DNA of 64,000 nucleotides from Apostichopus japonicus (lineage: Eukaryota; Echinodermata; Holothuroidea; Aspidochirotida; Stichopodidae): contig NC_092564.1 in the NCBI RefSeq assembly GCF_037975245.1, positions 21,059,984 to 21,123,983 of the forward strand, in the 5' to 3' direction. Positions 24,491 through 62,491 of the stretch are shown in pieces. Under the pieces are notes generated by a model that saw only the letters and a program-made list of their open reading frames with translations, was not told where the DNA came from and made no database searches. Position numbers and translations under genes: made by a program. Positions within the stretch are counted from its first letter, which is position 1. The number at the start of each line of letters is the position of its first letter.

Positions 24491-25155
24491 AACAAACTCT
24501 TATTAACCTCAAAATTTAAACTCAGTTAAGTTAATAAAGCCTTATATATTGGATGTGGTAACACTGTGGTGGTGGGAAGTATTAGGGGGTCTCTGAAGGA
24601 CCCCTATTTAATCCTAACTGCACTGGGGGGGGAGCATTATGACATTTTTTGCCACGGATGTTGAATCGTTTGAGATATGAACTAGATTTTTGACAGCACT
24701 TTTATCCATATAGGAGGAATTTTGGACCCCAAAAATTGGTCCAAAAAAATGTCGGTCACAAAAGCATTGGGGTCTGAAAACTTGTTTTCTTGGTACAAAC
24801 GTTTTTTTTTTTGGATAAAAAAAGATGTCCCGAAGTATTTCTTTTTGTCGGAACATAGAGACGTTGGAACATAGAGACTTCGGAACATAGATATGTAACC
24901 GTTCTAGCAACCACTGAGTCACCTAACTTTTGCATGAGAAATAGTTCAGAGACTATGTGTGCAGTAGCGACCGATTAGGACATCCGTATAGTTCTATACA
25001 GTGGCGGAGCTAGAGGTATTGGTCAGGAGGGGCGAGAATGGTCTGTAGGGGCGCTTTCGACACTATCTAAGCGGAGCGCCACCACAGGTGTAGCGTACAG
25101 AATTTTTTTGAGTAAAGATACTCACTAGATCGCCGGAAATGACCCTTTCCGGGCC

Positions 25156-26145
25156 GCGAATTTTTTTTCCCAAACAGGTTTGCAATTATGGAGTTTTCAG
25201 CCAATCAGATTGTTCGTGACGTCAGCATAAATAATAACCATCGCTTGGAAGTTCGAAGACATATACTGAGTTACACACTGACACTTGATTGAGTCTAGTT
25301 AAGGGGTTTCCCTTCAAACGCCCTAACTTGACTTTTAATGCTTGGATTACATGTTGACCTCACTTATGATACATACGCTACATTCTATTTGGTCCGTGTT
25401 TACGTTATCCACGATTCGTGAGCCGTTCTATTGAAATCAGAATTCGTTTCGTGGAATGGGTAGGCCAACACTAAAAGCAACTTCACGACGCGAGTTCACG
25501 AGTCTTGAGAGAATATACGCAAAACAGTATAGTGTATAGTGTGATATATTCCGTCACTGCACTGTGTACAGAGTTAAATGCTTGGATTACATGTTGACCT
25601 CACTTATGATACATACGCTACATTCTATTTGGTTCGTGTTTACGTTATCCACGATTCATGAGCCGTTCTATTGAAATCAGAATTCGTTTCGTGGAATGGG
25701 TAGGCCTACACTAAAAGCAACTTCACGACGCGAGTTCACGAGTCTTGAGTGAATATACGCAAAACAGTATAGTGTATAGTATGATATATTTCCGTCACTG
25801 CACTGTGTACATAGTTATTATACATATAGGCCTACAGCGCATGTGTGATGCACCCTGTACCAAACTTTCACTGTGCGATGTTATCGATTAATGCCTTCAC
25901 AGAAAACTTCATTCAAAGTAGATCATACAATACTAGTGTGCTAAATATGTCTAAACCAATTCCAAACATATCTAAATATATGTACGTAAAGCTACGGGTA
26001 ATTTTGAACGGGTATATCTTCGTTGCAACAAATGGATGCAGAACCTCGAAGTGAAGGTTTCTATGGTGATGACGTAACTTTTCCGACCAATCATGAACGA
26101 CTATTTACGCACACTTGCAAACTTGTTTGGGAAAAAAAAAATCGC
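25156..26145 (+). mobile_element. Nested non-autonomous DNA element with 9-bp target duplication
   Basis: Terminal repeats read gcgaattttttttcccaaac on the left and, in reverse complement on the right, gcgattttttttttcccaaa. They continue into caggtttgcaa-like sequence. The duplication TTCCGGGCC is exact (25147-25155 and 26146-26154). A 9-bp duplication suggests a Mutator-like element, but no transposase is present, so the class is inferred. It contains a 240-bp tandem duplication. An inverted second copy at 55927-57391 has only one copy of that segment. Confidence 0.85.
25337..25805 (+). repeat. 240-bp tandem duplication inside the nested element
   Basis: The segment starting aatgcttggattacatgttg at 25337 restarts at 25577, with few differences through 'gtcactgcactgtgtac'. 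The homologous copy at 55927-57391 has this segment once, so the duplication arose in this copy. Confidence 0.92.
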
Positions 26146-26385
26146 TTCCGGGCCTGGCTAATTTGCAGATAAACGAAGAATAAATAGGTGTCATCGCCAA
26201 ATTACACCAACAAACTGTGACAAATGTCAATAGGTAGATGAGAGCGCAATAAAAAAGTCAATAATCGCGAATAAGTAAAAAGTGGTAAAGAGCTGAAAAG
26301 AGCGCCAGCAGTCCACTTGAGTCCGTCAAGAGGGGGGGGGGGTCCGCCCCCCTGACTGTATGGACGCTCCGCCACAGGTTCTATA

Positions 26386-27500
26386 TATATCACTTCCCCC
26401 TTCGGTGCACAGCATAGAATTTGAAGTAGGAAGAATGACGTCAAGCGACATATACCGAAGCCACTCATCCAACTGGTGGAGCTTTGCCTGTACGGCAAGA
26501 AAGTACCGGCGCGTTATACAAACGCTACAGTGATAAAGTTGACATAAATCACTCGAAATGTTGATATCGTGTGCCGCATTTGGGTGCCAAAATCGTCAAA
26601 ATGTGGCAGTGAACTGCACTTTAACAGGTGATTCTTAGGAAGCGATAATAGAAGCAATTACATAGGAATCTAATTACTTTAATAGTGTCGTCTGCTCAGC
26701 TGCTGTATTGTTATACACTGGACCCTGGATATAGTTAGCCTATGCCCCTTGACGACTACGGCTGTCCTTTCGGATGCGATATGACTAAGGCCTAATGACA
26801 ACAATTACCACCTCGTTTTACATAAACTGTATCCCTAACGATAGATGCACTTGCCAGAATAACATGGGATGGTTTATGATGTCCTTAAGTTGGCTTATCA
26901 CTGCTTATCAATACTATAGGCAAATAGGCTTAGCCTAACTTAGGCCTATGTACGTAGCCTTGCCCTTGGTCTAACTTAGGTTAGCCTAGCTCATAACTTA
27001 AGCCTAGAATATTTCAGTCTATTAACATATCTAGAATTGTAAAAATATTCAAACACATCCTCCATTTGCAACATATTCCCAACACTGTAAATGTGGCAAA
27101 AGGGCATAAGCAGTATAGGCCTAGCCAGTAATCTGAGTTTTGAGGTAGGCCAAAGCCTACTCAGCCTAGCCAGGTATGTTCTGGACAGTAACTTTATAGG
27201 CTATTTACCTACTTTTATTCAACTATGATTTTAAGGCCTTGTGATATTCACTAACCATGTTTGGTCAAAGCTTTGTAGGCAAAACGACACATTCAAACCA
27301 CTACTCGTGCTAACATCTCATCATTTGATGGCTGTGACTGAATGTAGACAATCATCAAACTGTTTGTACTCTCACTTCATAAGGTGGGATATGTTATCTT
27401 ACATACACTACTACCCACTTTGTTACATTAACATTAAACTGAGAACTGCTGCATGCACAGACTAAAATGGAAGTATTACATAAAACGAGGTGAGTGTGGA
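26386..27500. other. Unannotated, taggcct-rich stretch
   Basis: No gene is supported. Many short taggcct/aggccta words occur between 26700 and 27240. They are dispersed rather than tandem. Confidence 0.3.
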
Positions 27501-27665
27501 AAGGGGGGGGGGGGAGGGAGGGTTGCATTTCACGGCATTTTCCAGGGACAACTATGACACTATCTGAGTGGAGCAATAAAATAATACAAGCAAGAAAAAT
27601 GTTTGCCATGTGCCTCTCAGATACCGGAAATGACACATTCCATGCATTAAAAGTTGCATAAAGCA
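27500..27665 (+). mobile_element. Relic of the shared-core MITE family
   Basis: It has a poly-G tract near 27505, then 'gacactatctgagtggagc' and 'gcctctcagataccggaaatgacac'. It then has 'gcattaaaagttgcataaagc'. These match the interior of the elements at 36528, 39964 and 45075. No terminal repeats remain. The 164-aa minus-strand ORF that covers it is therefore not a gene. Confidence 0.75.
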
Positions 27666-29150
27666 CTCCACTTGCTCGAATCATAGAAGCAAAAACAAAG
27701 TTGTCAAAGTTGGTTCTTAAGTCAGGAGTATAGTAATTACCACTCTGGTCGCCATAACATGTCTCTATTATGAAAAAAACCCCTAAACTTTCGAAAAATC
27801 GGGTAAAATCAAATTCAATTTCAAAGTCGAATGAACAATGTATGTTTGAAGACGTACAAATGATCTGGCTTTTTGCCGTACAACGCAAAGCGCCTTCACT
27901 TTTTCATATGCTTCACTGCTTAAACACACGGCGATAGACTGTGTCAGCTTTCTTCTTAGTTCAATTTCTATGGTGCACAGACATAAGTTTGCGTAAACAA
28001 ATCTATTGCAGGGGAAACCCCTTTCAGTGTCCCATCCTCAAACAACAGGAAACTAACGTACTACATGGTCGAAACGATTATGTTATAACCCTGCAAGTTC
28101 CCATGTTTTGTATTATTGACTAGAGTTTCTGAAAACTGTGCACGTCAAAGTGAGTTAACGGTTTGGAGTGTGTGACAAACTGAAAAGGTTTGTAAAATTA
28201 TGTAAACGTCACAACGTTGTAAATCTACTAATTACAATTACTTTGTGTGACCAATTGTTTGTAAAAACAAACTTTATTTCTCGTGGTATGACAACCGTCA
28301 TCTAACCGCTTAAAGTCATTGCCATGGCAACATCACGAGTCAGGGTAATCGGGTAATATCTGACACACCCAGATTATGTTGCCGTAACTATTAACGTGAT
28401 TACATGTATACTGTATGAGAAAAAACACAAGGTAATATTTTTCATGATGTTTCAATCTACCGTCGGTGTTGTTAATGGATGAAATATTTCATTTAATGAC
28501 TAACAATGACAGTGATACTTGTTAACACTAACGGAAACGGCGTAAAAACGGTAAACATTTTAATGCATTTTAAGAAAATAAAAAGGTTCTCATTATAAGA
28601 GCTAGACCACGCCTAGATGTGATTTAGTAATGAATATGCAACACTTAACAGAGACGGTGCCACCGTGTAACACAAGCATATACTACCCAAGTTTTAGATC
28701 CCAAATTTGAGTTAAAATGTTGAATTGGAAGCCACCCGACGTGAGATTGTAATTCATAAGCCCTTGCGGGATTCTCCCACATTCATGGTCGCTTAGCGTC
28801 GTAAAAATAAGTGCCTAATGGCCTGTATTTATTCATTTAGCTCCATGGTCCGTCAGCGGTATTCCGTTCTGATAGTAATACTGCATTGGTAAGGTATACA
28901 CACTGTACATGTACTTACACTAATCCTGTTAGAGAGTTGTAGGCTCAGTGTACTAGTTGTGATAGCGGTTGTTTTCTTCTCGACTTAATTCTTCCTCTGC
29001 GTAAGGTTTTATCACCGGACAACCGTTTTCATAACATAGGACTTTAGAAGCGATATTATTGCTGAACTGAATAAGCACTTAAGATGGTATACAAGTCAGT
29101 GTTCCTTCGATCAGCTTCATCGAGCGTCAGTTAGAACTTGAATTGTAGTC
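27666..29150. other. Unannotated intergenic DNA
   Basis: No repeats longer than a few bases and no gene-like ORF with splice or domain support were seen. Confidence 0.3.
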
Positions 29151-29158: not shown

Positions 29159-29680
29159 CAGTGGCGTAGCTAGAGGTTTTGGCGCTTGGGTGCAAGAGTA
29201 GAAAATTGCGCCCCCTCCACAACTGAAAGAAAAATAAACTGCGCGCGAAAATTTTTGGTTATATTTTTTCGGGCAAGTGTTACAGCCCCCCCCCCCCTAC
29301 TAAATCAAATTGTGCTCCTACGCCTATGATATTTTCACCTTTCGAAATCTACTGCCTTGGAACTGTATATACTGAAATACCCGTGACATTTCCGTGACAT
29401 GTAGTCATTACAGAATACAGAACAGAGTAAAAAAAAAGAGAAACGGTCGAAATGGACAGAAAAGAAATCACAATCTATAAATTTGCTAATAAAAACAACT
29501 AAATTCAGTTCAGATTCTTATTAGTAACTGGAAAATATACATGCCTGACGACATACATTAATTTCGTCATGTTTTTCTAAACGTGCTTTTTTTATTTTAC
29601 TCTCATTCTCCCATTTCAGCGCCCCCTAAACCCGGCGCCCGGGGCACGTGCCCACCCTTGAACCCCTAACTACGCCACTG
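29159..29680 (+). mobile_element. hAT-type MITE, 522 bp
   Basis: The left end is CAGTGGCGTAGCTAGAGG and the right end, in reverse complement, is CAGTGGCGTAGTTAGGGG. An exact 8-bp duplication GGTCCTAG flanks it (29151-29158 and 29681-29688). A poly-C tract lies near 29286. No transposase is present. Confidence 0.94.
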
Positions 29681-36430: not shown

Positions 36431-37101
36431 GAGATTAATACATGCTGTTATTTAAATTTATAGTTTATTCTCAATCGATGTATTGAAAAATAGCATAGTT
36501 TAGAGTTACACTTACCCCATTCGAGGACATAGGCGTACGGGACCATTTCAGTTTGGGGGGGGGGGGCAGAACTTTTTGTGCCCGAAAGTTCCTGTGACAC
36601 TATCTAAGCGGAGCGCCACCATCGGTTGGCGCGTAGCGTACAAGAATTTTTTTGGCAAAAGATGCCTCTCAGATTGCCGGAAACGGCACTTCTGAGGCCT
36701 TGCAAGTTGCATCTAAACATTCTTTATTTTATAATCTCACGTTTTAGAAATTTACACTTCCCCAAAAATTTGGTAAATTAGAAGAAGAAAAAATGGTAAC
36801 ATCACTTTGAAGGGGAAAAATGTGACAGTATATTTTTTAAGCTCCTATTAAGTTATCTTATTTATTATTTTAACACAGTACTCAGCTACCTCCAGAAAAA
36901 CATACATTGTTCAACCACACGTAGGCGGGATAATGTCGCTGTGCCGGGTGAGACTGCAATTTGTCTCACAAAACAGTATAAAATGTAACAAGAATATGAT
37001 AAACCTGTACTACTAGGCTTGTAGGCACTCCCCCACCCCACCCCACCATCCATGAAAAAGAAAATGTTTCTTATATACACTCATGTTGGGGATGTCCAGG
37101 T

Positions 37102-37756
37102 CAAGGGCGGCGGAAGCACTTTAATCTGGGGGGGGGCACCGACATCAAAGGGCACTTTGTAGAAATTCGATTGGACTGAAGCAGTCTTACATTTAGTACC
37201 CTTTATAACTCTTATTGTATTATCTTATTTGCGTATACACATCACTCCATCAACGCCCCCCCCCCCCCCCAAAGGAAAATATGCCCATACTAGCACTGCA
37301 ATATCCAATGCGCAAATTGGGAAACAAGGAACAAGTTTTCTTTTGAGACAAAATGAGGTGAAATCATGCTAGTTGCTAATGTAGGAATCTTCCGAATTAG
37401 AGTTTTTTTCTTGTTAATATCTTAACAATTTTTTTTCCATTCAAAATAGCTTTGAGTTTGACCCACAGAAATTCATTAAAAGTCACGGGCTTAGCCAGGA
37501 TTTGCAAAGTTGTATGTACGACTATCTGAGCGGAGTGCCACCATCGGTTGGCGCGGAGCGTACTAGAAAATTTTTGGTTTTTACAAACCCCTCAGATGGC
37601 CGGAAACGGCCCTTCCCGAGTATTCATTCTGGTTCCCTGGCCTCTTGCTAACTTGAGGCACCTCAATTTTTATGTAGAAAAAAGGCACATTTTTAACCTG
37701 AGGAAAAGTGGGGGGGGGGCACGTCCCCCTGTTCCCCCCCGGTTCCGCCGCCATTG
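37102..37756 (+). mobile_element. Nested hAT-type MITE, 655 bp
   Basis: The left end is CAAGGGCGGCGGAAGCAC and the right end, in reverse complement, is CAATGGCGGCGGAACC. An exact 8-bp duplication GTCCAGGT flanks it (37094-37101 and 37757-37764). The sister element at 45075-45994 has a single uninterrupted gtccaggtata at the same place, which confirms the insertion. It carries its own copy of the shared core at 37521. Confidence 0.94.
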
Positions 37757-37936
37757 GTCCAGGTATACAATTGACTAGTTAGAAAAAAAAAATGTTCGTG
37801 CAAAAAGCGTGGTAGCCCAGATGAACTGCGCTTACGATGGTGTTACACGGAAATATTCGGGCAGCATGATGCTAAATAAAGAAAATCATGGAATTGTCGG
37901 GCAAAAATTTGAAAAAATTTCGGGCAAGCTTCTGTA

Positions 37937-37967
<31 letters not shown>

Positions 37968-37970
37968 TTC

Positions 37971-38110
37971 CAGAGGACAAGAAATTCGGGCAAAAGTCCT
38001 GAAAAATTCGGGTAGCCTAATAGGAGAAAAAAAATATATATATATATATTTTTTCTCCTCTTAGGCTGCCCGAATTTTTCAGGACTTTTGCCCGAATTTC
38101 TTGTCCTCTG
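37971..38110. repeat. 140-bp near-perfect palindrome
   Basis: Two 70-bp arms, centred between 38040 and 38041, are inverted copies with about three mismatches. The outer ends read cagaggacaagaaattcggg and its complement, and the centre is a TA-rich run. The relative at 45075 has only one arm, so this is an inverted duplication inside the MITE. Confidence 0.95.
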
Positions 38111-38163
38111 AAAATTTGGGGGGCAGTCTGCCCCCCCCTGCCTCGTACGCCTATGTTCGAGGA

Positions 38164-39275
38164 AGGAATGGGATAGACATGATACTGCGGGAAAATGACA
38201 CGGGATGGTGGGGGTGGGTGGGGGCGGGGGGGGGGGGGTGGGGTTAGGCTAGGGTTATTTCTCCCATATAGTTTTCGCAACGGTTCAATGGATTTATCTG
38301 TATCATGTGTGATGTGTGTAATGGGTCTAAAGATCATAAGAATATTACTAATAAGCTTTGTTTTTATTTATAGTATTAGGCCTACATCAAATAATCTTTG
38401 CAGCACATGACAGAATGCTGACATTTTCCAGTCTGGTCGTTTGTTTCCGTCATATGCAAACTTATAAATATTAAACATATCTCAAGACTGAGTCCTATCA
38501 ATGTATATCCATTCTTTGCTTCAATTCCATGAATATATATAAATATTTTTTAAACAATTTCTGTTTGCCAGCGTTTATGATTTAAGTACATCAACATAAA
38601 TTGCCTGATAAGGCTATCTGAAATGAAACTTAAACACTTTCATCGGGGTTTGAACCGACAATTGCCAGAAAATTTACAAAAAACTATCACTAATTATAAA
38701 TATTTGAGATTTATTGGTCAAATTAAGACACCCCTTCTGATGAATATTAAGTTTACTAGCACAAGTAATGAATATTTTCGTTCGTCATTCAGGGCGAGTT
38801 TCACAGACATAAGCTTTATAGAAATCACATGCAAGAAGGAAATTGAGATCTTATTTTCTGTTGTTCTTTTTAACTGAACTTTGACCATTAAAGCTATATA
38901 TATCTATCTATCAGGTTGGTATGTTAATTCAACATCGATTCACCTCCCCCCCCCCCCCCCCCCACAAAAGGTGAATGTAAAATTATACTTTGTAAAGAAT
39001 ATTTGCACTAAAATGTGGTTTATGCGAGTCTTGCAGATTAAATTACGTGCACCTTACCAAAAAGAGGTAACTTCGGTAGAGACAGTTCATTTTGTAAATT
39101 TAATACGCATTTGCGGTCAAACGTCCGACCACAATATGTTCCCTCAGAACGAATCCAAGTTTCACAGAAGTTGAGGACCTTTTCCATTGTGGCACAGTTA
39201 GTATCTTTGTGTCACTTATACGTCACGACTGACCCAGATCTGTTAACAACAACGAGAAATTGTCAAATGGTATAG
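38164..39275. other. Unannotated intergenic DNA
   Basis: A G-rich run lies at 38205-38245 and a poly-C run near 38946. The 84-aa and 97-aa ORFs here have no recognised domain. Confidence 0.3.
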
Positions 39276-39452
39276 GTGAGCAGGCTTTGTAGATATCCCC
39301 GTATATACAGTCAGGGGACAGGGATGAGCAGGCTTTACAGAGATCCCCGTATACAGTCAGGGGACAGGGATGAGCAGGCTTAATAGAGATCCCCGTTAAC
39401 AGTCAGGGGACAAGATTGAGCAGGCTTTATAGAGATCCCCGTATACAGTCAG
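39276..39452. repeat. 46-bp minisatellite, left part
   Basis: The unit contains gagcaggctttatagagatc, cccgtatacagtcagggg and acaggg. About four copies are present before the array is broken by inserted elements. The array resumes at 43040. Confidence 0.95.
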
Positions 39453-39963
39453 CAGGCGCGTTTCCAAGGATTTTCTAACCCGGGGGGCGCGAATTACTAT
39501 CTAAGCGGAGCGCCACCATCGGTTGGCGTGCAGCGTACACGAAAATTTCTGGTTTTGATATCCCCTCAGATCACCGGAAATGACACTTCTCGGGCTTGAA
39601 AATGACCATCCAGATGTACACTTTTGCCTGAGAACCAAGTATTTCCCAATAGTTTTTTTTCCCATCCATAACCTTTTTGAAGATTTTCACCAGTCACACA
39701 TCATGTTCGACCTCATCGCGTCTCCTGTGGATCATTGCTTTTTGTAGGTGATTCTACGTCGCGGCCCACAATACCCGACAGCCTCAGGTTATAAGCCCAA
39801 TTTTTGTTCAGAATTTCAAAATTCACATTTCTCGTGATTAAACTCACTTCAAAACATACCCATATTGTTGCAAAAAATTTCATCTATGGACAACCAATAT
39901 AGAAAAACCTCCTTGAACCCCTAACAGACTGGTCAAAATTGCACGAGTAGAGGGAAGTATGAT

Positions 39964-40797
39964 CATAGGCGTACGGGACCATTTCAGTTTGAGGGGGGGG
40001 GGGGTCAGAAACTTTTGTGCCCGAAAGTTCCCGTGACACTATCTCAGCGGAGCGCCACCATCGGTTGGCGCGTAGCGTACAAGAATTTTTTTGGCAAAAG
40101 ATGCCTCTCAGACTGCCGGAAATGGCACTTCTGAGGCCTTGCAAGTTGCATCTAAACATTCTTTATTTTATAATCTCACATCTTAGAAATTGACATCCCC
40201 CCCAAAATTTAGTAAATTAGAAGAAGAAAAAATGGTAACATCACTTTGAAGGGGAAAAATAGGACAGTATATTTTTTAGGCTCCTATTTAGTTACCGATA
40301 TTTATTATTTTAACACAGTACTCAGCTACTTCCAGAAAAACATACATTGTTCAATTGTAGGCGGGATAATATCGCTGTGTCGGGTGAGACTGCAATTTGT
40401 CTCACAAAAAAAATATAAAAAATAACAAAGAATATGATAAACCTGTACTTCTAGGCTTGTAGGCACTACCCCCCCCCCACCATCCATGAACAAGAAAACG
40501 TTTCTTATATACATTCATGTCGGGGATGTCCAGGTATACAGTTGACTACTTAGAAAAAGTTTTGGATGATAGTGCAAAAAGCGTGGTAGCCCAGATGAGC
40601 TGCGCTTACGGTGGTGTTACACGGAAATATTCGGGCAACATGATGCTAATTAAGAAAATCGTTAGGCCTTTATTAATATTAATGTCACAAAACAAATAAC
40701 ATAAAACGCTCTCCACAGAATTTTCGGGCAAAATTTGAAAAAGATTCGGGCAAGCTACTGCATATTTATATGTTCATATATATATTTTTTCTCCTTG
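39964..40797 (+). mobile_element. Family C MITE, 3'-truncated copy
   Basis: It starts CATAGGCGTACGGGACC and follows the interior of 36528-38155 and 45075-45994 through the shared core at 40038, 'caagttgcatctaaacattc' and 'gtggtagcccagatgagctg'. It stops in the TA/T-rich zone near 40795 without the right terminal repeat. It has an extra segment with 'gcctttattaatattaatgt' not seen in its relatives. Confidence 0.85.
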
Positions 40798-41251
40798 GTA
40801 ATTAAAATAAAGTTCTAAGCTTGGCCGACTAATTCGCCATTACTAATGTAAAAGAGTTTTGACATAATTGGACCTCCATGCTTTTTCTCAATCTACATAA
40901 GACAAAACGTTGTTTATATGAGCATCCAGCGGTATACTGCGCAACTTTCAGTGACCGTACGGTACATGATGGCATGCGAAGTAATAACCGATGCTTGCTT
41001 ATATGATATTGACATTAACAATGTTGATTATGTTGAAATGTTGGTTATATTTTTCGGGGAAGTCGTTACAGCTCCCCAAATCAAATTGGGCTCCTTCGCC
41101 TTTCACTACACACAAACAGTTTTGAGGCTCTTCATCCTGGAACGCCATTTTCATGCTCCCTAATATGATGTGATATCTGCTGTTTGCTTTACAAAATCGA
41201 ACTGGTGCGTAGCGAATAATTTGCCAAGTGAGTGGCGAAGCCTGTTGGCAA

Positions 41252-41475
41252 ACTATCTAAGCGTAGCGCCACGATGGTTGGCGCGAAGCGTACAAGAAAA
41301 TTTTGCTCGAAAATGCCTCCGAGATCGCTGGAAATGACACTTCCCATGCCTCGTAAGTTGCATCTAAGCATTTTCTATTTCGAATTGACTAGCGATATCA
41401 TAATAAAAATATGCTCGGGGGGGGGGGGGGGGCGGTCGCCCCATTCCCGAAATGCGTCATGTTCCCCGACGCCTC
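41252..41475 (+). mobile_element. Diverged shared-core MITE fragment
   Basis: It carries 'actatctaagcgtagcgcca', then 'ggttggcgcgaagcgtac' and 'gccgcctccgagatcgctgg'-like blocks. A 15-base poly-G tract lies near 41417. The terminal repeats were not resolved. Confidence 0.6.
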
Positions 41476-41744
41476 GGTCTAGTTCGAGACCAGCCACAGT
41501 TGGTTTCATAGCACAATTGTTTAAGGCGTCCATACACACACGCGCGTTATGGTAGACCATATATAGTATATATATAGATACATTAGTGAGAGAGGAAAGA
41601 TGGAAACGTCAAAAATGGAGTTGTCGGTGTAAGGGGTAGGGTGAGGCGTACGCCCTTCCGAGATCCTCGATCCGTCACTGGCTACCCGACCATGTGTATG
41701 TAATACTAGGTTCAGCGCAGCGCTGTCACTGGCGGTGTCTTGGC

Positions 41745-43675: not shown

Positions 43676-43830
43676 GACCGTCAGCCCTATAGTGTCCTTG
43701 AGCGTCACCCCATAGTGTCCTTTAGAGTCAGCCCTAATGTGTCCTTAAGGGTCAGCCCTATAGTGTATTTGAGGGTCAGCCCTATAGTGTCCTTAAGGGT
43801 CAGCCCTATAGTATATTTATCGTTAACCAT
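43676..43830. repeat. 24-bp tandem repeat, about 6 copies
   Basis: The unit gtcagccctatagtgtcctt plus 'aagg' is repeated with single-base changes and one 23-bp copy. It directly abuts the 46-bp array. Confidence 0.93.
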
Positions 43831-45074: not shown

Positions 45075-45808
45075 CATAGGCGTACGGGACCATTTCAGTT
45101 TGGGGGGGGGAGAATTTTTTTCCTGAAAGTTCCCGTGACACTATCTAAGCGGAGCGCCACCATCGGTTGGCGCGTAGCGTACAAGAAATTTTTTGACAAA
45201 AAATGCCTCTCAGACTGCCGGAAACGGCACTTCTGAGGCCTTGCAAGTTGCATCTAAAAATTCTTTATTTTATAATCTCACGTTTTAGAAATTTGCACTT
45301 CCACAAAAAATTGGTAAATTAGAAGAAGAAAAAATGGTAACATCACTTTGAAGGGGAAAAGTAGGACAGTATATTTTTTAAGCTCCTATTTAGTTACCGT
45401 ATTTATTATTTTAGTACTCAGCTACCTCCAGAAAAACATACATTGTTCAACCACACGTAGGCGGGATAATGTCGCTGTGTCAGGTGAGACTGCAAGTTGT
45501 CTCACAAAAAAAGTATAAAATATAACAAAGAATATGATAAACCTGTACTTCTAGGCTTGTAGGCACCCCCCCCCCCCCTTACCATCCATGAAAAAGAAAA
45601 TGTTTCTTATATACACTCTTGTCGGAGATGTCCAGGTATACAGTTGACTAGTTAGAAAAAAAATTTGATCGAGCATAAAGCGTGGTAGCCCAGATGAGCT
45701 GCGCTTACGGTGGTATTACACGGAAATATTCGGGCATCATGATGCTAAATAAAGAAAAAGTGGAATTGTCGGGCAAAAATTTGAAAAAGATTCGGGCAAG
45801 CTACTGCA

Positions 45809-45893
<85 letters not shown>

Positions 45894-45994
45894 TTTTTTT
45901 TTCTCCTCTTAGGCTGCCCGAATTTTTCGAATTTCTTGTCCTCTGGAAATTTGGGGGCAGTCTGCCCCCCCTGCCCCCGCCTCGTACGCCTATG
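45075..45994 (+). mobile_element. hAT-type MITE, 920 bp (family C, copy 3, full length)
   Basis: Ends CATAGGCGTACGGGACC and, in reverse complement, CATAGGCGTACGAGGC. The flanking 8 bp are GTGTTCCC (45067-45074) and GTGTTCCT (45995-46002), a duplication with one change. It holds the shared core at 45140 and a long (TA)n tract at 45813. This is the reference copy for family C. Confidence 0.92.
45813..45893. repeat. (TA)n microsatellite inside a MITE
   Basis: About 40 TA units with one C interruption. The related elements at 36528 and 39964 have much shorter TA runs here, so it expanded after insertion. Confidence 0.97.
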
Positions 45995-46525: not shown

Positions 46526-47751
46526 CAAGGACGTCGCTAGAGGGGGTGGGGTTGGGGGGGGGTGTCTCACCCCCAAACTTGATAAAACTGACAATAGTTG
46601 GAACATTGAGTGCGACAGTCGGAATTTCCGACTGTCACACCCTTATTTACCTAGGCCTATTCGTATATTCCTGTGAATATTTACCAGTTTTCTTTGCGTC
46701 TTTGAAAAATTGTATCTCGCGATCCTTATACTCCACAATACAAATCTTCGTATGATTTTGAATACCCTAAAAAAATGCCTAATAGAACAACTGTGCAACG
46801 TTCGCCAGCTTCAATTCGGTTTTTTATGTAATAATTTTACTATTGGATGGGTTGACCCTGCTCGCTAGCTTCAAGTAAGTTCAGGATATATATTTTCTCT
46901 ATGGTATACAATTAAAACACTCAATGCTAATCTACGGAAGCTTAGACGTGCCATCAACATAAGAAAAACTTTGCCCCATAAGTTGACATTTTTCAGTAAA
47001 TTGTTTAGATAACAAGATCAAATCTTATCAAAAATCAGAAAAATGTTGCATTGCTCATTTGCTTTAACTGAGCAATTGAACAATTTTCTGCAAAATGTTT
47101 AATTGACAACTTATCGTATCTCGTCAACTCAAAAAGTTTATGCAAAATGTTTAATTGTTCTCTTCATTCCAAATGCTCATTTGGAATGAAGTGAACATGA
47201 AGTGAACATGAAGTGAACATGAAGTGAACATGAAGTGAACATGAAGTGAACATGAAGTGAACATGAAGTGAACATGAAGTGAACATGAAGTGAACATGAA
47301 GTGAACATGAAGTGAACATGAAGTGAACATGAAGTGAACATGAAGTGAACATGAAGTGAACATGGAGTGAACATGGAGTGAACATGGAGTGAACATGGAG
47401 TGAACATGGAGTGAACATGGAGTGAACATGGAGTGAACATGGAGTGAACATGAAGTGAACATGGAGTGAACATGAAGTGAACATGAAGTGAACATGAAGT
47501 GAACATGAAGTGAACATGAAGTGAACATGAAGTGAACATGAAGTCTATGTAGCCTTCAAGCAGATAACTTATACTCAGTTGCTTACTTACTTAACCAGAG
47601 TGATTAATAAGTGTGTGAATTGATGGGGTGGGGTGGGGGGGGGGTACAAGGCAGCAATCGGAATTTTTTGGCTTCAAAACCCTTCCAGTTGGAATTTCAG
47701 CCACAACACCCCACCCCCCCCCCCAATAATCAGGTCTTAGCTACGTCCCTG
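46526..47751 (+). mobile_element. hAT-type MITE carrying a minisatellite, 1226 bp
   Basis: The left end is CAAGGACGTCGCTAGAGG and the right end, in reverse complement, is CAGGGACGTAGCTAAGAC. An exact 8-bp duplication ACTGGGAG flanks it (46518-46525 and 47752-47759). G and C tracts sit just inside each end. A perfect inverted repeat, gacagtcggaa/ttccgactgtc, lies near 46614-46638. The 11-bp array at 47186 is internal. Confidence 0.93.
47186..47544. repeat. 11-bp minisatellite, about 33 copies
   Basis: The unit atgaagtgaac is nearly perfect. A block near 47361-47470 consists of the variant atggagtgaac, which marks a local expansion. Because 11 is not a multiple of 3, one reading unit spans 33 bp; the repeated 'MFTSCSLHVHF' minus-strand ORFs come from this. 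A 28-bp palindrome (ttcattccaaat-gctc-atttggaatgaa) at 47163-47190 abuts the array. Confidence 0.97.
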
Positions 47752-49631: not shown

Positions 49632-52315
49632 CTATCATAATGAAAATATATGTACTACCTATCGTAATGAAGGTATATGCACTACCTCTCATAATGAAGG
49701 TATATGACTACCTATCATAATGAAGGTATATGTACTACCTATCATAACGAAGGTATAAGTACTACCTATCACAACGAAGGTATATGTACTACCTATCATA
49801 ATGAAGGTATATGTGTACTACCTATCATAATGAAGGTATATGTACTACCTATCGTAATGAAGGTATGTACTACCTATCATAATGAAGGTATATGTACTAC
49901 CTCTCATAATGAAGGTATATGCACTACCTCCCATAATGAAGGTATATGTGCTACCTATCATAATGAAGGTATATGTACAACCTATCGTAGTGAAGGTACA
50001 TGTACTACCTATCATAATGAAGGTATATGTACTACCTATCGTAATAAAGGTATATGTACTACCTATCGTAGTGAAGGTACATGTACTACCTATCATAATG
50101 AAGGTACTGTATGTAATACCTATCGTAATAAAGGTATATGTGTACTACCTATCATAATGAAGGTATATGTACTCCCTATCATAATGAAGGTATATGTACT
50201 ACCTTTCATAATGAAGGTATATGTACTACCTATCATAATAAAGGTATATGTACTACCTATCGTAATAGAGGTGTATAAACTACCTATCATCATGACGGTA
50301 TATGTACTACCTATCATAATGAAGGTATATGCACTACCTATCATAATGAAGGTATATGACTACCTCTCATAATGAAGGTATATGTACTACCTATCATAAT
50401 GAAGGTATATGTATTACCTATCGTAATAAAGGTGTATGTACTACCTATCGTAGTGACGGTTCATGTACTACCTATCATAATGAAGGTACTGTATGTAATA
50501 CCTATCGTAATAAAGGTATATGTGTACTACCTATCATAATGAAGGTGTATGTACTCCCTATCATAATGAAGGTATATGTACTACCTATCATAATGAAGGT
50601 ATATGCACTACCTATCATAATGAAGGTATATGTACTACCTATCGTAATAAAGGTATATATACTACCTATCGTAGTGAAGGTACATGTACTACCTATCATA
50701 ATGAAGGTACTGTATGTAATACCCATCGTAATAAAGGTATATGTGTACTACCTATCATAATGAAGGTGTATGTACTCCCTATCATAATGAAGGTATATGT
50801 ACTACCTATCATAATAAAGGTATATGTACTACCTATCGTAATAAAGGTGTATATACTACCTATCATCATGAAGGTATATGTACTACCTATCATAATGAAA
50901 GGTATATGTACAACCTATCATATTAAAGGTATATGTACTACCTATCATAGTGAAGGTATATGTACGTAATAAAGGTGTATATACTACCTATCATCATGAA
51001 GGTATATGTACTACCTATCATAATGAAAGGTATATGTACAACCTATCATATTAAAGGTATATGTACTACCTATCATAGTGAAGGTATATGTACGTAATAA
51101 AGGTGTATGTACTACCTATCATAATGAAGGTATATGTACTACCTATCATAATGAAGGTATATGTGTACTACCTATCATAATGAAGGTATATGTACTCCCT
51201 ATCCTAATGAAGGTATATGTACTACCTATCATAATGAAGGTATATGTACTACCTATCATAATGAAGGTATATGTACTACCTATCGTAATAAAGGTGTATA
51301 TACTACCTATCATCATGAAGGTATATGCACTACCTATCATAATGAAGGTATATGTACTACCTATCATAATGAAGGTATATGTACAACCTATCATATTAAA
51401 GGTATATGTACTACCTATCATAATGAAGGTATATGTACTACCTATCGTAATAAAGGTGTATGTACTACCTATCATAATGAAGGTATATGTACTCCCTATC
51501 CTAATGAAGGTATATGTACTACCTATCATAATGAAGGTATATGTACTACCTATCATAATGAAGGTATATGTACTACCTATCGTAATAAAGGTGTATATAC
51601 TACCTATCATCATGAAGGTATATGCACTACCTATCATAATGAAGGTATATGTACTACCTATCATAATGACGGTATATGTACAACCTATCATATTAAAGGT
51701 ATATGTACTACCTATCATAATGAAGGTATATGTACTACCTATCGTAATAAAGGTGTATGTACTACCTATCGTAGTGAAGGTACATGTACTACCTATCAAA
51801 ATGAAGGTATAAGTTCTACCTATCGTAATAAAGGTATATGTACTACCTATCATAATGAAGGTATATGTACTACTTATCATAATGAAGGTATATGTTCTAC
51901 CTATCGTAATGAAGGTGTAAGTACTACCTATCATAATGAAGGTATATGTACAAGATATCATAATGAAGGTGTATGTACTACCTATCATAATGAAGGTATA
52001 TGCACAAGATATCATAATGAAGGTGTATGTACTACCTATCGTAATGAAGGTGTAAGTACTACCTATCATAATGAAGGTATATGTACAAGATATCATAATG
52101 AAGGTGTATGTACTACCTATCGTAATGAAGGTGTAAGTACTACCTATCATAATGAAGGTATATGTACAAGATATCATAATGAAGGTGTATGTACTACCTA
52201 TCGTAATGAAGGTGTATGTACTACCTATCGTAATGAAGGTATATGTACAAGATATCATAATGAAGGTGTATGTACTACCTATCGTAATGAAGGTGTTAGT
52301 ACTACCTATCATAAT
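49632..52315. repeat. 27-bp minisatellite of about 99 copies with higher-order units
   Basis: The basic unit is tactacctatcataatgaag plus 'gtatatg'. Variants include cgtaataaag, catcatgaag, catattaaag, gtacaagatatcat and tactccctatcctaat. Unit order repeats on a larger scale: eleven units (297 bp) near 51160-51460 recur at 51460-51770. In the last 400 bp a two-to-three-unit pattern with 'acaagatatcataatg' dominates. Since 27 is a multiple of 3 and few variants create stops, several frames on both strands stay open for hundreds of codons (nine-residue words such as TTYHNEGIC, or MIGSTYTFI on the minus strand). There is no promoter, start context or splice support, so it is treated as non-coding satellite. 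Confidence 0.95.
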
Positions 52316-52945
52316 GTCAGTCACGTTAAAGAGTCATCAGGTACGGTAACGTTTTCTGTGACAATAAGTAATTGTTTATAACCGTTAAGGAGCTTTGCGC
52401 AAGCGCGGAGTGGTTGAAAGTGCCGGTCCCCATGTTTGTGTAATATCGTGGAATGTACAAACCATGCGTTAATCTTACGAAGAATCTTTCCCACTCCTGT
52501 GTATTTATAGGCTAACAGAGAACATTGTAAGCATATCAAAAAATAACAAATACGTTTGAACTTTGCGACTATTTCCAAATAAAACGAAAGTGGCTCGTAA
52601 ATTAAAGCGGAAAATATAGACAAATATTGTTTTTCCTATTATGCTGATGTGCACTAGGAAGCAATTTATTGGAGTCTGCGGAAACCATATATGATTTTGT
52701 TACCAGTACCAGCAAAATTTTAACCTCGCGAACAGAAACGAACAGTGTAAGCTGTTGAAAGAACGGATACATCCATAGCAGATAATGTTCTGATCCATAG
52801 CTCCTCAGAACGCCGCCATTGTACTCATGTGATTTCCATTGCTATCAGCATAGGCTAGGAACAGGGGAAGACTACCCCCCCCCCCAAAAAAAATAAGGGA
52901 TTTAAAAATTCGGGCAAAAAAAAAATATTCCGAAGGCTAAATACA
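52316..52945. other. Unannotated intergenic DNA
   Basis: No supported gene. A poly-C then poly-A run lies near 52875-52890. Confidence 0.3.
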
Positions 52946-56078: not shown

Positions 56079-56410
56079 CAGTGGCGTAGGAAGGTACTTT
56101 TGAGTGGGGGGGGGGGGGCTGAAGACTGATGGCCGGCCTTGGAATTATTTTGCATTTGGCCTCAGATGCAATTTGGTGCAATATAGCACACTTCAACACC
56201 CACTCCATTTTGTAAATAATTTTGCATTTTCACCTGGCCTTAGATGCAATTTGGTGCTCCAAATGAGATTTTTTTCTCATTTGGAAAGGAAAAAGGGGTT
56301 TTCTGACTTACGAAGCGGGGGGGGGGGGGGGGCGGAATGATACTTCCGCCCCTCCATATTTTTCACTGGGGGGGGGCTGGCGCCCCCACCCCCCGGTTCC
56401 TACGCCCTTG
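56079..56410 (+). mobile_element. hAT-type MITE, 332 bp (family G, copy 2)
   Basis: It starts CAGTGGCGTAGGAAGG and ends, in reverse complement, CAAGGGCGTAGGAACCGG, as in the copy at 18374. An exact 8-bp duplication CCCGTTCA flanks it (56071-56078 and 56411-56418). The homologous site at 26000-26020 in the other host element shows the same word once, confirming the insertion. It lacks about 40 bp present in copy 1 and has longer G tracts. Confidence 0.95.
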
Positions 56411-56552: not shown

Positions 56553-56876
56553 GGAGTGTATAGCCTAGTGGTTAACGCCGGCGTCTCCCAGTCATGAGAT
56601 CCCCGGTTCGATTCCCCGCCGACACCAATGTGTGTCGTCTGGCAAGGGTGTTGTTCAATAACAACTTCCTGACATGGACGTTAAATGGATGTGTGCCGAG
56701 AGATTGGCTTCGGTCAGCTTGCGAGTCTACAAGCCTCCATGGCTTCTTTCGCGAGTTCCTGCTTGCGGGAAGATCACATATACATACATACATACATACA
56801 TACATACATACATACATACATACATACATACATACATACATACATACATACATACATACATACATACATACATACA
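56553..56876 (+). mobile_element. tRNA-derived SINE with (CATA)n tail
   Basis: The tRNA-like head has a pol III A box (tagcctagtgg, 56561-56571) and a consensus B box (ggttcgattcc, 56605-56615). They are 33 bp apart, normal for a tRNA gene. The head is followed by a body of about 140 bp and a (TACA)n tail of about 100 bp. Just upstream, 'gtgtatagcct' is repeated twice more, a short duplication of the head. The tRNA stems are imperfect and the body continues past the tRNA-like part, so this is a SINE and not a working tRNA gene. It interrupts the element at 55927-57391 at 'ctacttt|aagtttt'. Confidence 0.85.
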
Positions 56877-57985
56877 AGTTTTTTGTGAAGGCATTAATCG
56901 ATAACATTGCACAGTGAAAGTTTCGTACAGGGTGCATCACACATGCGCTTTAGGCCTATATATATTATAACTGTATACACAGTGCAGTGACGTAAAATAT
57001 CATACTGTACACTATACTGGTTTGCGTATATTCATTCAAGACTGTCAACTCGCGTTGTGCAGTTTGATTTTAGTGTTGGCCTACCCATTCCACGAAACGA
57101 ATTAAGAATTCCATAGAACGGCTCACGAATCTTGGATAACGTATACACGAACCCAATAGAATGTAGCGTATGTAGGCTATCATAAGTAAGGTCAACATGT
57201 GATCCAAGCATTAAAAGTAAAGTTAAGGCGTTTGAAGGGAAACCCCGTAACTTAACTTAATTAAGTGTCAGTGTGTAACTCAGTGTATGTCTTCGAACTT
57301 CCAAGCGATGGTCATTATTGATGCTGACGTCACGAGCAATCTGATTGGCTGTAAACTCCATAATTGCAAACCTGTTTGGGAAAAAAATCGCAACCAGTCC
57401 CACTGTACACAACTTATAATATTTCACATTGACCCCCACTTTTTCCACCCAGTTCGATAATCTATACCGCACAATAGTGCAGAATACCCTCCCTCCCCCT
57501 CCCCACCCCTCCCCTCAGTCTAGTACAGTCGTCCGGAGATCGTGCAACATATAGAAGTTTGTTCCTGGGTTAGTATTGAAGAATAATCCCAAACTGAAAG
57601 AGTGTAGTAAATAAAGAAATATTTGTGTGGTCCCAAATTCAGATCTACTACGCGTTGCTTTGTCCATTCATGAAGACATTGTCCTAGCAAATGACAGTAC
57701 AGTACAATTATAGGAACTATGATAAACCCGTCATAAAGAACCCGACAACATAATGTGAAGATTATGTAGACATTTTCCTGTAGAGGTTTGATAAACCATG
57801 TCATGACATAAATATGCCCCCATGACCAAATATGTTAGGATTTAATTACCAATATACCGAACTGTTAAAATATCGTCATAGATGCAATCAGTCTGCTACA
57901 GCCTGCAGGGAAAAACGAAGACGATCTTATAGTGAGACTTTGGTACATTCTTTAAAGTCACTTACGATATACTCTGTTATTTCAG

Positions 57986-59246: not shown

Positions 59247-59252
59247 AATAAA
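59247..59252 (+). terminator. Kazal gene poly(A) signal AATAAA
   Basis: It lies 144 nt after the stop and is followed by a GT/T-rich stretch (gtgcgttgttcttcc), a normal downstream element. It sets the gene end near 59270. Confidence 0.7.

Positions 59253-60204: not shown

Positions 60205-60214
<10 letters not shown>

Positions 60215-60283
<69 letters not shown>
60215..60283. repeat. (TA)n microsatellite
   Basis: About 34 uninterrupted TA units. Confidence 0.97.
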
Positions 60284-60286
<3 letters not shown>

Positions 60287-60597: not shown

Positions 60598-60701
60598 ACC
60601 CTCCACCACCCTATCGACACCCTCCACCACCCTATCGACACCCTCCACCACCCTATCGACACCCTCCACCACCCTATCGACACCCTCCACCACCCTATCG
60701 A
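60598..60701. repeat. 21-bp minisatellite, 5 copies
   Basis: The unit accctccaccaccctatcga plus 'c' is almost perfect. Because 21 is a multiple of 3 it opens ORFs on both strands, none credible. Confidence 0.96.
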
Positions 60702-61362
60702 GTACTTTGTTTTTATACTCTTCATTTTGTTAGCTTAATATAATTTCTTGTTAATTTTCAAGATGTCCTACTTTTCTTTACAGAAGGATGCATCTTGTTT
60801 TGCCTTGCTATCTATGCTCCTGTTTGTTGATCTGATGTCATTGTTTACAGTAATCTCTGCCTCCTGAAAGCCCAATAACGTCGAAATCCAGGTCTCACAA
60901 AAGCTAATAATTGTGTCTGAGTGATGACTGGAGCCGGATAAAATACACAAATTCCCTTTTCACAGAGGAAAGTTACCCTATACATATATTATAGATAGCA
61001 ACCTTCATTTTAAAAATAAAGCACGAATTTGTATCTTTCGTTGCTAGCTGTCAACCGAAGTCTTGCTTGTTTGTAAGCATAAAATATGACATTGTTTTGG
61101 TAAGATAAACTTAATTCGTGTCACAATTAATTTTGCACATTTTCTTCTTTTTCTACTTTGTTCTATGTCTCTTTTCATTAATGTAAAGAACAGTTTGTAA
61201 GCGGTTCAGCCGAGAAACTCCTCTTTCGGTATACGATTTAATAAACTCCAATAAGAGCCGATATCATAACTAAGTCCCTCCTCCAACTTCATATTTGTGT
61301 CGGTTTCCTTGAAGAAGGATATGCAATATGACGGTATTAAACCGGATCAAACAACGGCTTAT

Positions 61363-61452
61363 TTGCCTAAGTTCTGTAACAGAAAGGGGTTCATAAACAA
61401 CATTGACATTAATTGTTTGCCTAAGTTCTTTAACAGAAAGGGGTTCTGAAAC
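61363..61452. repeat. 54-bp tandem duplication, 1.7 copies
   Basis: The segment tttgcctaagttctgtaaca followed by 'gaaaggggttc' restarts 54 bp downstream with two substitutions. Confidence 0.9.
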
Positions 61453-61601
61453 AATGAATATCAATGTTATTTGTTACGTTCGACGGCACGCGGAGCTTAA
61501 CAAAACGGGCGTGTCATGGCACGCTAGGAACTAAAATCATGATACCTGCTTCAAGTGTTACCAGTCTTTGCATGGAAAGTTGTCAAATGAATGAATAGCA
61601 G

Positions 61602-62491
61602 CATGGGCGTCAACAGGTGGGGGACGGGGGGGGGGGGACATGTCCCCCCCCACTTTCAAAAGTGGAGGGGATATCATATCATTTGTCCCACCCACTTTTC
61701 AGAGTAGTTATTAAAAAAAATCACATGCATATGCGCGATTTTCTATTTAAGGTCAAGAAATCTGGACTCCCTGGGCCCCTTCTATCTATCACTTGCACCG
61801 TCATTTATCTCCCATTCTCCCAATATCCTAAATCTGCCCATTTAATTCGTTCGGGGGGGGGGGGGAGACCATTCGAAAGTGTATTGAATCTTGCACACAT
61901 GTTGTTTGTATGGGTTCCAAGGGATTAGGTAAGCCATACAGGTAGATGGTGATGAGTTACTATGTTCATATCACTACCTCCAGTCCCTTGGACTGCACGG
62001 ACGAATAGGGGTGTAGGGGTTAAGTAATTAAGGCTACATGTATTCGCCGGATATGGTAGATCTTTATTGTTGAGTGCCGGCTAGGCGCTACACACGCTCT
62101 GCGCGCGGTGCCTTTTTCTGATTATTATTATTAAAGTACCTGGGCACATAACAACTGACGTCTCGCACCTACATGCACTCATCCCGGAGGTGACGGCGCC
62201 ACTTTTTCAATATTTCGTTTGAGATGGACGCTGTGTAATTCGTCTCCCTTGGTGTCAGAACGGCATCTTTCTACCAGTACTTTCTGTCGGGATTTAGTTT
62301 TGTGAGACAAAATTTCTCCTCACAGATCTGGTTCTGATGTAACTAAAAACGACTCAGGAAGGCCGTCTCCTGCGATCTAGGGGGTCTTATGTACCCAAAA
62401 TTTTCTGGTACGCTACGCGCCAACCAATGGTGGCGCTCCGCTTAGATAGTATAGTGTCCCCCTCACTTTCTGAAGCCTGCTGACGCCCATG
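61602..62491 (+). mobile_element. hAT-type MITE, 890 bp
   Basis: The left end is CATGGGCGTCAACAGG and the right end, in reverse complement, is CATGGGCGTCAGCAGG (15 of 16 match). An exact 8-bp duplication AATAGCAG flanks it (61594-61601 and 62492-62499). The shared core is present in reverse orientation at 62407-62450. The middle, about 61960-62390, has a different composition and may be a further insertion. No transposase is present. Confidence 0.94.

What the first reader, a model, noticed from the sequence alone, without database searches (positions are those of the whole stretch)
24999..62491. One conserved hairpin core shared by hAT-like MITEs with different ends and interiors
A block of about 45 bp, 'actatctaagcggagcgcca' then 'ccatcggttggcgcgtagcg', occurs at 25062 (decayed), 27559 (decayed), 36599, 37521, 39496, 40038, 41252 and 45140, and reversed at 62407-62450. 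It sits in elements whose terminal repeats differ (CATAGGCGTACG, CAAGGGCGGCGG, CATGGGCGTCA, CAGTGGCGGAG). The centre can fold as GCGCCA-CC-ATC-GG-TTGGCGC, and the loop base varies (atc or att) while the stem persists. In most copies a 'gcctctcaga..gccggaaa.ggcacttc' block follows. A core kept while the ends diverge suggests a function: transposase binding, an RNA structure, or a module swapped between elements. I do not know a described family with this core.
Basis: partly seen in the sequence, partly recalled or inferred. Interest (0 to 1): 0.72.

Follow-up and report, generated by a model that had tools for sequence, protein, structure and literature searches.

The report
Shared palindromic module in hAT transposons
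Many families of jumping DNA in this genome have different tips but carry the same short palindromic module just inside one tip, and the same module sits in full-length elements whose enzymes are only about 30 to 43 percent alike, so it is probably a docking site that these enzymes use.

Summary
In detail: nine copies in the window, in hAT-type elements with 8-bp target duplications. The conserved unit is about 105 bp: a 43-bp quasi-palindrome plus a weaker 62-bp block. Over 10 cluster representatives the 43 bp average 88.7% identity, the 62 bp 69%, and DNA on either side is near the shuffled level. Genome-wide 10,494 sites fit a strict pattern, control 0; I count 13 end-families.

I found the source. 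Four transposase lineages (29-43% aa identity where compared) carry the module antisense, downstream of the gene, 47-66 bp from that end; their cores are 86-98% identical. One family has a compensatory stem switch. The module also moves: one window MITE is a core-less element that took up a core-bearing piece, and one copy joins a foreign end at the core.

Best reading: an asymmetric subterminal transposase-binding site, as in Hermes. Against: a relative 36% identical to the F4 transposase has no core in its non-coding parts; binding is untested; RNA structure is not excluded. Precedents: coral CMITEs, Hermes left end. New variant of a known kind.

The parts
36599..36703 (+). core module (43-bp quasi-palindrome 36599-36641 plus 62-bp block), family F6
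36528..38155 (+). F6 hAT MITE, TIR CATAGGCGTACG, TSD TTCGAGGA, with a nested element
37102..37756 (+). nested MITE with group B ends (CAAGGGCGGCGG), TSD GTCCAGGT, carrying a captured core
37484..37665 (+). 182-bp F12-type piece with the core, inserted in group B derived sequence
   Evidence: 92% to L067
37521..37625 (+). core module, F12 type
39496..39600 (+). core module, family F1; left end near 39453 (read by eye)
40038..40142 (+). core module, family F6; left end CATAGGCGTACG at 39964, no right end found
41252..41355 (+). core module, family F3 type; decayed left end near 41202 (read by eye)
45140..45244 (+). core module, family F6
45075..45994 (+). F6 MITE, TIR CATAGGCGTACG, TSD GTGTTCC[C/T]
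62346..62450 (-). core module, family F11
61602..62491 (-). F11 MITE, TIR CATGGGCGTCA, TSD AATAGCAG
25062..25159 (+). decayed core module (right arm deleted), family F2
24999..26377 (+). F2 element, end CAGTGGCGGAG, TSD GTTCTATA (by eye)
27559..27661 (+). strongly decayed core module; a possible enclosing element is 26413-27972 (TSD GTGCACAG), family unclear

Best explanation
The core is a conserved cis-acting subterminal module of a set of hAT transposons with DUF4371-type transposases. In four autonomous lineages it lies 47-66 bp from the end downstream of the transposase gene, antisense to it (shown). It consists of two inverted GGCGC-type arms around a variable 6-8-nt centre, then an A/T tract and a second block (shown). 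Most likely each arm is bound by the N-terminal zinc finger of one transposase subunit, so that the palindrome recruits a pair of subunits to one end and orients the synaptic complex, as the left-end STR1-STR2 quasi-palindrome does in Hermes (inferred). MITEs keep it because those without it are not amplified (inferred). TIRs drift with each transposase, and ends can also be exchanged beside the core by recombination or gap repair, so one core is found behind many ends (exchange shown in two cases, mechanism inferred).
For: Conservation is an island: over 10 cluster representatives (45 pairs) mean identity is 0.470 upstream (shuffled 0.449), 0.887 in the 43-bp core, 0.690 in the 62-bp block and 0.469 downstream (shuffled 0.454). 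Found through the transposase, not the core: F4 (L071, 5519 bp, TSD ATCGGATA, 796-aa open frame with DUF4371 and Dimer_Tnp_hAT), F14 (L118/L119), F15 (L117) and F5 (L123) carry it antisense downstream of the gene, 47, 58, 66 and 59 bp from the end. Their 43-bp cores share 38/44 to 42/43, while the 44 bp outside share 19-23 of 45-49 and DNA 110-270 bp further in 40-52%. Transposases: F4-F15 and F4-F5 29-30% over about 255 C-terminal residues, F15-F5 43%, F4-F14 31%. MITE cores sit at similar distances: 31 of 40 sampled copies have a CA..GGCG-like end, 30 of them 42-68 bp upstream, one at 91. Arms: both intact in 81 of 100 sites, changed on one side in 17, on both sides with pairing kept in 2. 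5 of 5 full transposases examined have an N-terminal CxxC..HxxxxxH-like motif (shuffles show it in 2.6-13.5%). Hermes precedent: PMC10368747 (passages and section 8).
Against: A related autonomous element, group B (36% aa identity to F4, TSD GATGGACC read), has no core hit in its 5' and 3' non-coding parts, so not every close relative needs it. L069, L072 and L070 show none in 2.05, 1.66 and 1.7 kb downstream and L074 none in 1.1 kb, though their ends were not defined. Presence does not follow transposase similarity simply, which fits gain and loss by exchange as well. A second small hairpin seems to keep pairing rather than sequence, which a protein site does not predict. No binding data; one genome only; that MITEs without a core fail to amplify was not tested.
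Confidence: 0.6

Rival explanations
1. RNA (or extruded single-strand) structure: the module is transcribed, in the transposase 3' UTR or from an end promoter, and works as hairpins that control processing, export or translation, or are cut as small-RNA precursors.
For: On 20 aligned rows the first stem is 98.1% paired; over both stems the covariation score is 0.095, reached in 0 of 500 shuffles and above the six slid controls. Family F8 switched C-G to G-C: of 100 listed left-arm variants 61 are G with C, 3 G with T, 2 G with G. A second hairpin varies in sequence but own halves pair better than cross-matched halves, p 0.008, region chosen after inspection.
Against: Symmetric change in both arms is equally expected of a dimeric DNA site, and it is one family-level switch. 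In one search the count of further pair types is ordinary (120 of 500 shuffles reach it) and one of the three second-stem pairs is unpaired in 11 of 20 rows. In one search only 4 of 16 rows fold better than shuffles at p<0.05 and F14 is at p 0.97. Of five window copies folded, one is clearly more stable than shuffles (z -3.15; the others -1.07 to +0.45). No Rfam match in the window at gathering score. Non-coding MITEs would not need a transposase-mRNA element.
Confidence: 0.15
2. A portable module selected for cross-mobilisation: the core is recognised by many transposases of this group, and elements gain it by recombination or gap repair, so its uniformity reflects exchange among elements rather than long vertical constraint.
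For: Window MITE 37102-37756 is built from the core-less group B plus a 182-bp core piece of family F12. L120 carries F6 core and interior (90% over 729 bp) behind an unrelated 48-bp end, homology starting at the core. Core presence does not track transposase similarity.
Against: Exchange would usually carry flanking DNA too, yet between the autonomous families nothing clearly aligns beyond the module. L120 is a single copy with unlike ends and may be dead. The copies of the 37102-37756 chimera that I saw are inside F6 composites, so its own mobility is shown only by its TSD in the window.
Confidence: 0.12
3. Host-factor or promoter site: the core binds a host protein (for instance a cell-cycle or chromatin factor reading GGCGC) that drives expression or timing of transposition.
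For: Two inverted GGCGC arms with flexible spacing look like a paired factor site (sequence).
Against: The E2F-like TTTSGCGC (motif recalled) occurs in 1 of 100 sites. In the four autonomous lineages the core is downstream of the gene. MITEs have no gene to express.
Confidence: 0.08
4. Inherited homology only: all families descend from one element and the core is simply the part that still aligns.
For: All families have hAT-type ends, and elements are inherited by copying.
Against: Flanks on both sides, including the adjacent 40 bp, are near the shuffled level while the core is near 89%, and transposases have diverged to about 30% identity. A neutral segment would not survive that.
Confidence: 0.05

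Closest known systems
CMITE families of Acropora corals (PMC2872659; abstract, sections 10 and 14 read)
   Same: MITE families with different TIRs that share an internal region more conserved than the TIRs; the authors suggest a role in transposition and cross-mobilisation and describe tandem arrays and a new element made by insertion.
   Different: CMITEs are about 100 bp with TTAA duplications and piggyBac-type ends, about 1600 copies in A. millepora, internal region of unknown origin. Here ends and 8-bp duplications are hAT-type, more than 10,000 cores fit a strict pattern, the module is subterminal at one end, and autonomous carriers are identified. No sequence comparison was made.
Hermes left end, STR1-STR2 quasi-palindrome bound by two BED fingers (PMC10368747; passages and section 8)
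   Same: hAT element; a quasi-palindrome near one end read by N-terminal zinc fingers; asymmetric ends.
   Different: Hermes sites lie within bp 11-27 and are AAG(T/C) repeats. Here the site is 43 bp within a 105-bp conserved unit, 41-72 bp from the end, and shared by many families. Binding is not shown here.
Tip group of hAT transposons, BuT2 and Tip100 (PMC3942097; passages)
   Same: DUF4371 plus hAT dimerisation domain (reported for BuT2); 8-bp duplications.
   Different: The text does not contain the word subterminal, and no shared module was seen in the passages; phylogenetic placement of the transposases here was not tested.
SINE highly conserved V domain spread by the MER6 DNA transposon (PMC6887750; search listing and start of abstract)
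   Same: A conserved domain shared by elements that otherwise differ, with a link to a DNA transposon.
   Different: The domain is SINE-specific; here no tRNA or Rfam match in the window and a fixed place inside DNA transposon ends.

Membership tests
hAT superfamily (elements) | 8-bp target site duplication | tested here: met
   4 core elements (one with a mismatch), F4 autonomous, group B, 24999-26377 by eye
hAT superfamily (elements) | short TIRs beginning CA and ending TG | tested here: met
   CA..GGCG-like end in 31 of 40 sampled copies, the other nine decayed, variant, interrupted or unclear
hAT superfamily (elements) | partner transposase with C-terminal dimerisation domain PF05699 | tested here: met
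   F4: E 4e-8; L069, L070, L072 also
Tip group of hAT | DUF4371 with hAT dimerisation domain | tested here: met
   the feature as reported for BuT2 in PMC3942097
Tip group of hAT | groups with Tip100/BuT2 in a transposase tree | not tested
   reference transposases were not at hand
MITE | short, non-coding, TIR plus TSD, high copy number | tested here: met
   655-1628 bp elements; no ORF of 140 aa or more in the four bounded core elements; 10,494 strict core sites genome-wide
CMITE (coral, piggyBac) | TTAA duplications, piggyBac-type ends | tested here: not met
   8-bp variable duplications
CMITE (coral, piggyBac) | internal region more conserved between families than the ends | tested here: met
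Hermes-type BED-bound quasi-palindrome | quasi-palindrome near one transposon end only | tested here: met
   for F4 the other end was read and has no core, for F14 and F5 it was not read
Hermes-type BED-bound quasi-palindrome | bound cooperatively by two transposase zinc fingers | not testable with these tools
   needs EMSA or a structure; only a CxxC..HxxxxxH-like motif seen
SINE with conserved core domain | tRNA-, 5S- or 7SL-derived Pol III head | tested here: not met
   no tRNA and no Rfam match at gathering score in the window
Known structured RNA family | match to an Rfam model | tested here: not met
   window: none at gathering score; 36500-41500 at E up to 1: 14 matches, none over a core

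The most novel reading that the evidence does not exclude
The core is a common docking module for a whole guild of hAT transposases. Elements that carry it can be moved by several enzymes, and selection acts on the module rather than on the element: ends are swapped at it and elements without a core acquire it. The unit of transposon evolution here would be a 105-bp cassette shared across lineages whose enzymes are only about 30-43% alike.
Probability: 0.25. Interest if true: 0.75.

Novelty: new variant of a known kind. Interest (0 to 1): 0.52.

Why it matters
A non-coding site that stays near 90% identical while the enzymes that would use it diverge to about 30% is unusual, since transposon ends and transposases are expected to co-evolve. 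If it is a shared docking site, it explains how one genome supports over ten thousand such elements with many different tips, and it makes the old question of what makes a MITE successful directly testable: add or remove a 105-bp cassette and measure mobilisation by several transposases. It also suggests where the conserved interior of coral CMITEs might come from: the subterminal region of autonomous elements.

Tried and rejected
SINE-like or tRNA origin: no tRNA, no Rfam match. E2F-type site: TTTSGCGC in 1 of 100 sites. A third hairpin around GCCGGAAACGGC: pairing not kept across families (judged by eye). Within-family rate test: 1 of 430 substitutions in the core against 23 of 620 in the second block for 10 F6 copies, but copies were chosen by similarity to a query spanning both, and the F11 alignment downstream is unreliable, so I give it no weight. 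Likeness of TIRs to the core on the same strand: 11 of 1000 shuffles reach the observed sum, 353 of 1000 for the opposite strand; TIRs of related families are not independent, so weak (F8 and F13 left out, ends unclear). L108 first looked like an end swap, but the foreign stretch resembles the small insert in L097. L120 was not counted as an autonomous carrier because its core belongs to an F6-type copy with an F6-like right end. A viral-contig scan found nothing. Two more stem positions could not be surveyed: the genome search was busy at each attempt.

Rows dropped before counts. One search used 10 of 19 clusters (dropped: close variants of a kept family, truncated or decayed copies); two of the ten (L067, L064) are one family. 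One search used 16 rows with F5 twice and related families. One search used 20 rows, several from the same family. Of the 40 sampled loci, L114 was chosen for its variant; the other 39 are the first 39 sites of the list.
Full report
OBSERVATION. A profile built from six of the reported copies finds nine copies in the 64-kb window at the reported places. Five of the nine fit the strict pattern CTATCTAAGCGN{22,25}AGCGTAC by reading; that pattern has 10,494 exact matches (5200 + 5294) in the 671.6-Mb genome against 0 for the reversed control, so the true number is perhaps near 19,000 (rough extrapolation from 5 of 9). A TIR/TSD scan bounds four core elements with 8-bp duplications and different ends: 36528-38155, 37102-37756, 45075-45994 and 61602-62491. 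A fifth, 24999-26377, I read by eye. Four hAT-like elements of the same scan have no core: 29159-29680, 41949-43039, 46526-47751 and 56079-56410.

FAMILIES. I fetched 40 core sites, the first 39 of the list (all on contig C1) plus one chosen for its stem variant. They fall into 15 sequence groups. With the other loci I count 13 families with a recognisable end of their own, for example CAGGCGCGTATCC (F1), CAGTGGCGGAGC (F2), CAGGCGTGTAGCG (F3), CAGGCGCGGCGG (F4), CAGGCGCGTAGCC (F5), CATAGGCGTACG (F6), CATGGGCGGCGA (F7), CATGGGCGTCAG (F11) and CAGGGGCGTAGCC (F12); two more groups (F8, F13) have unclear ends. A pattern search finds a CA..GGCG-like end within 110 bp upstream of the core in 31 of 40, 30 of them at 42-68 bp and one at 91 bp with a local insertion. 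Of the other nine, by eye, four have a decayed or variant end (L076, L088, L106, L111), one differs by a letter (L087), two are F8 copies with unclear ends, one is strongly diverged (L085) and one is interrupted (L108).

WHAT IS CONSERVED. Over 10 cluster representatives (45 pairs) mean identity is 0.470 in the 40 bp upstream (shuffled 0.449), 0.887 in the 43-bp core, 0.690 in the next 62 bp and 0.469 further on (shuffled 0.454). The module is thus an island of about 105 bp. Among 100 listed sites the six-base arms GCGCCA and TGGCGC are both intact in 81, changed on one side in 17 (some of these leave a G-T pair), and changed on both sides with pairing kept in 2, while the centre has 24 variants of 6-8 nt. 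The pattern fixes bases outside the arms, so strongly decayed copies are not sampled. A search for left-arm changes at the fifth base finds 539 sites; in the 100 listed the G variant is matched by C in 61, T in 3 and G in 2; T is matched by the usual G in all 19; A is matched by C in 8, G in 6 and A in 1. This is one family-level compensatory switch (F8), not many. On an alignment of 20 rows the first stem is 98.1% paired; over both stems the covariation score 0.095 is reached by 0 of 500 shuffles and exceeds all six slid controls, changes on both sides in 3 pairs are reached by 13 of 500, and the number of further pair types is ordinary (120 of 500); related rows inflate such counts. A second small inverted repeat just downstream takes forms such as GGGT/ACCC, GAGT/ACTC, GGCA/TGCC and GTCT/AGAC. 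Own halves pair better than cross-matched halves (152.5 against a mean of 135.4, p 0.008), but I chose the region after looking, some rows are related, only 4 of 16 rows are individually below p 0.05, and F14 shows no such stem (p 0.97).

WHERE IT COMES FROM. Searching the genome for the hAT dimerisation domain and then for relatives of one transposase led to full-length elements. L071 holds a 5519-bp element with TSD ATCGGATA and TIRs CAGGCGCGGCGG/CAGTGGCGGCGG. It has a 796-aa open frame with DUF4371 (E 5.1e-19) and Dimer_Tnp_hAT (E 4e-8), and the core lies 47 bp from the end downstream of the gene, on the opposite strand. A second copy (L073) is 99.95% identical over 4184 bp and its homology stops at the same end. 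BLASTN of the whole element against the window returns only the core region (element bases 39-153). Three further lineages have the same arrangement: F14 (L118 and L119, whose mutual homology starts within 5 bp of the end CAGGCCCGTCGG), F15 (L117, end CAGGGGCGTCAATCC) and F5 (L123, end CAGGCGTGTAGCC), end-to-core distances 58, 66 and 59 bp. For these three only the downstream end was identified; no matching duplication was found for F15 in the 2.2 kb read upstream. Over about 255 C-terminal residues F15 and F5 are 29-30% identical to F4 and 43% to each other; F14 is 31% to F4. Their 43-bp cores share 38/44 to 42/43 positions, while the 44 bp outside share 19-23 of 45-49 and the 160 bp from 110 bp inward 40-52%. 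These elements were found through the protein, so this comparison is not biased by searching with the core, except that only elements with a detectable core can be compared.

RESULTS AGAINST A SIMPLE STORY. Ten transposase lineages were looked at with flanks: F4, F14, F15, F5, L037, group B, L074, L069, L072 and L070. Four carry the core at their own end. L037 has one downstream in the same orientation, but no end was recognised. Five have none there: group B, and L069, L072, L070 and L074 within 2.05, 1.66, 1.7 and 1.1 kb downstream (L070's two cores lie upstream, in a separate 1213-bp element). Only for group B are the ends known. Group B is closer to F4 (36%) than F15 (32%) or F14 (31%) and is bounded by GATGGACC on both sides; its coding part was not read in full. 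So the core has been lost or gained within the group. In the 30 loci, with about 1.5 kb of flank each, 2 had a core nearby.

EXCHANGE OF PARTS. The window MITE 37102-37756 is made of group B's 3' end (37102-37367, 91%), a piece of its 5' region (37366-37477, 87.5%) and its 5' end (37664 to the element end, 91%), with a 182-bp piece at 37484-37665 that matches the core-bearing F12 copy in L067 at 92%. A core was thus taken up by an element of a core-less lineage. L120 has core and interior of F6 (90% over 729 bp) behind a different 48-bp end, homology beginning at the core; it is one copy with unlike ends and may be dead. Nested elements also amplify as composites: 21 of 99 gaps between successive listed sites are under 1.3 kb against 1.5 expected, in spacing classes near 335, 700, 1080 and 1200 bp. 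Of the 8 F6 loci (L001 is the window copy itself) 7 hold a second core in the same orientation, 6 of them at the nested spacing of about 900-920 bp.

HOW IT PROBABLY WORKS. Similar distance and fixed orientation at one end, a palindrome with flexible centre, persistence in non-coding MITEs and near-identity across diverged transposases are what a transposase docking site would show. Hermes offers a worked example: two BED fingers bind a quasi-palindrome of the left end cooperatively (PMC10368747, passages and section 8); Kat1 also depends on sequence beyond the TIR (PMC4763223, passages). All five full-length transposases examined have a CxxC...HxxxxxH-like motif in the N-terminal part; shuffled sequences show it in 2.6-13.5%, and Pfam finds no zinc finger in the F4 N-terminus, so this is suggestive only. 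Binding itself is not shown. An RNA role remains possible because symmetric stem changes cannot tell a hairpin from a dimer site, and because the second hairpin seems to keep pairing more than sequence.

WHAT IS KNOWN. The nearest phenomenon in print that I found is the coral CMITE group: piggyBac-type MITEs whose 75-bp internal region is more conserved than their TIRs, origin unknown (PMC2872659, abstract and sections 10 and 14). The DUF4371 plus hATC architecture is reported for BuT2 of the Tip group (PMC3942097, passages). Nine paper searches listed no description of this module; Repbase and Dfam were not available, so a database entry cannot be excluded.

Noticed in passing
L097 (C1:1399176-1399597) and L108 (C1:2005872-2006293): A 24-bp palindromic insert with a 10-bp duplication (GGAGACTATC) sits at the 5' edge of the core in an F4 copy; a similar stretch ends at the same edge in an F1 copy. 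Possibly another tiny element that targets this site.
   Followed up: no
contig C1 sites; L001-L008: Nested MITE-in-MITE composites with two cores have amplified as units in several spacing classes (about 335, 700, 1080, 1200 and 900-920 bp).
   Followed up: partly
L045/L046 (C21:19333823 and 19334041): Two F11 cores 218 bp apart in direct orientation, apparently an internal duplication of an element end.
   Followed up: no
window 39206-39481 and 43041-43702: The same 46-bp tandem repeat unit occurs in two arrays about 3.6 kb apart.
   Followed up: no
window 49646-52400: Large diverged 27-bp tandem array, open over up to 406 codons on both strands; probably not a gene.
   Followed up: no
window 25162-25909 and 56876-57387: Inverted copies (91-93%) of a longer repeat about 31 kb apart.
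   Followed up: no
window 18376-18754 and 56081-56410: Copies of another hAT-like MITE, without core, that also lies in the flank beside a group B transposase copy in L115.
   Followed up: no
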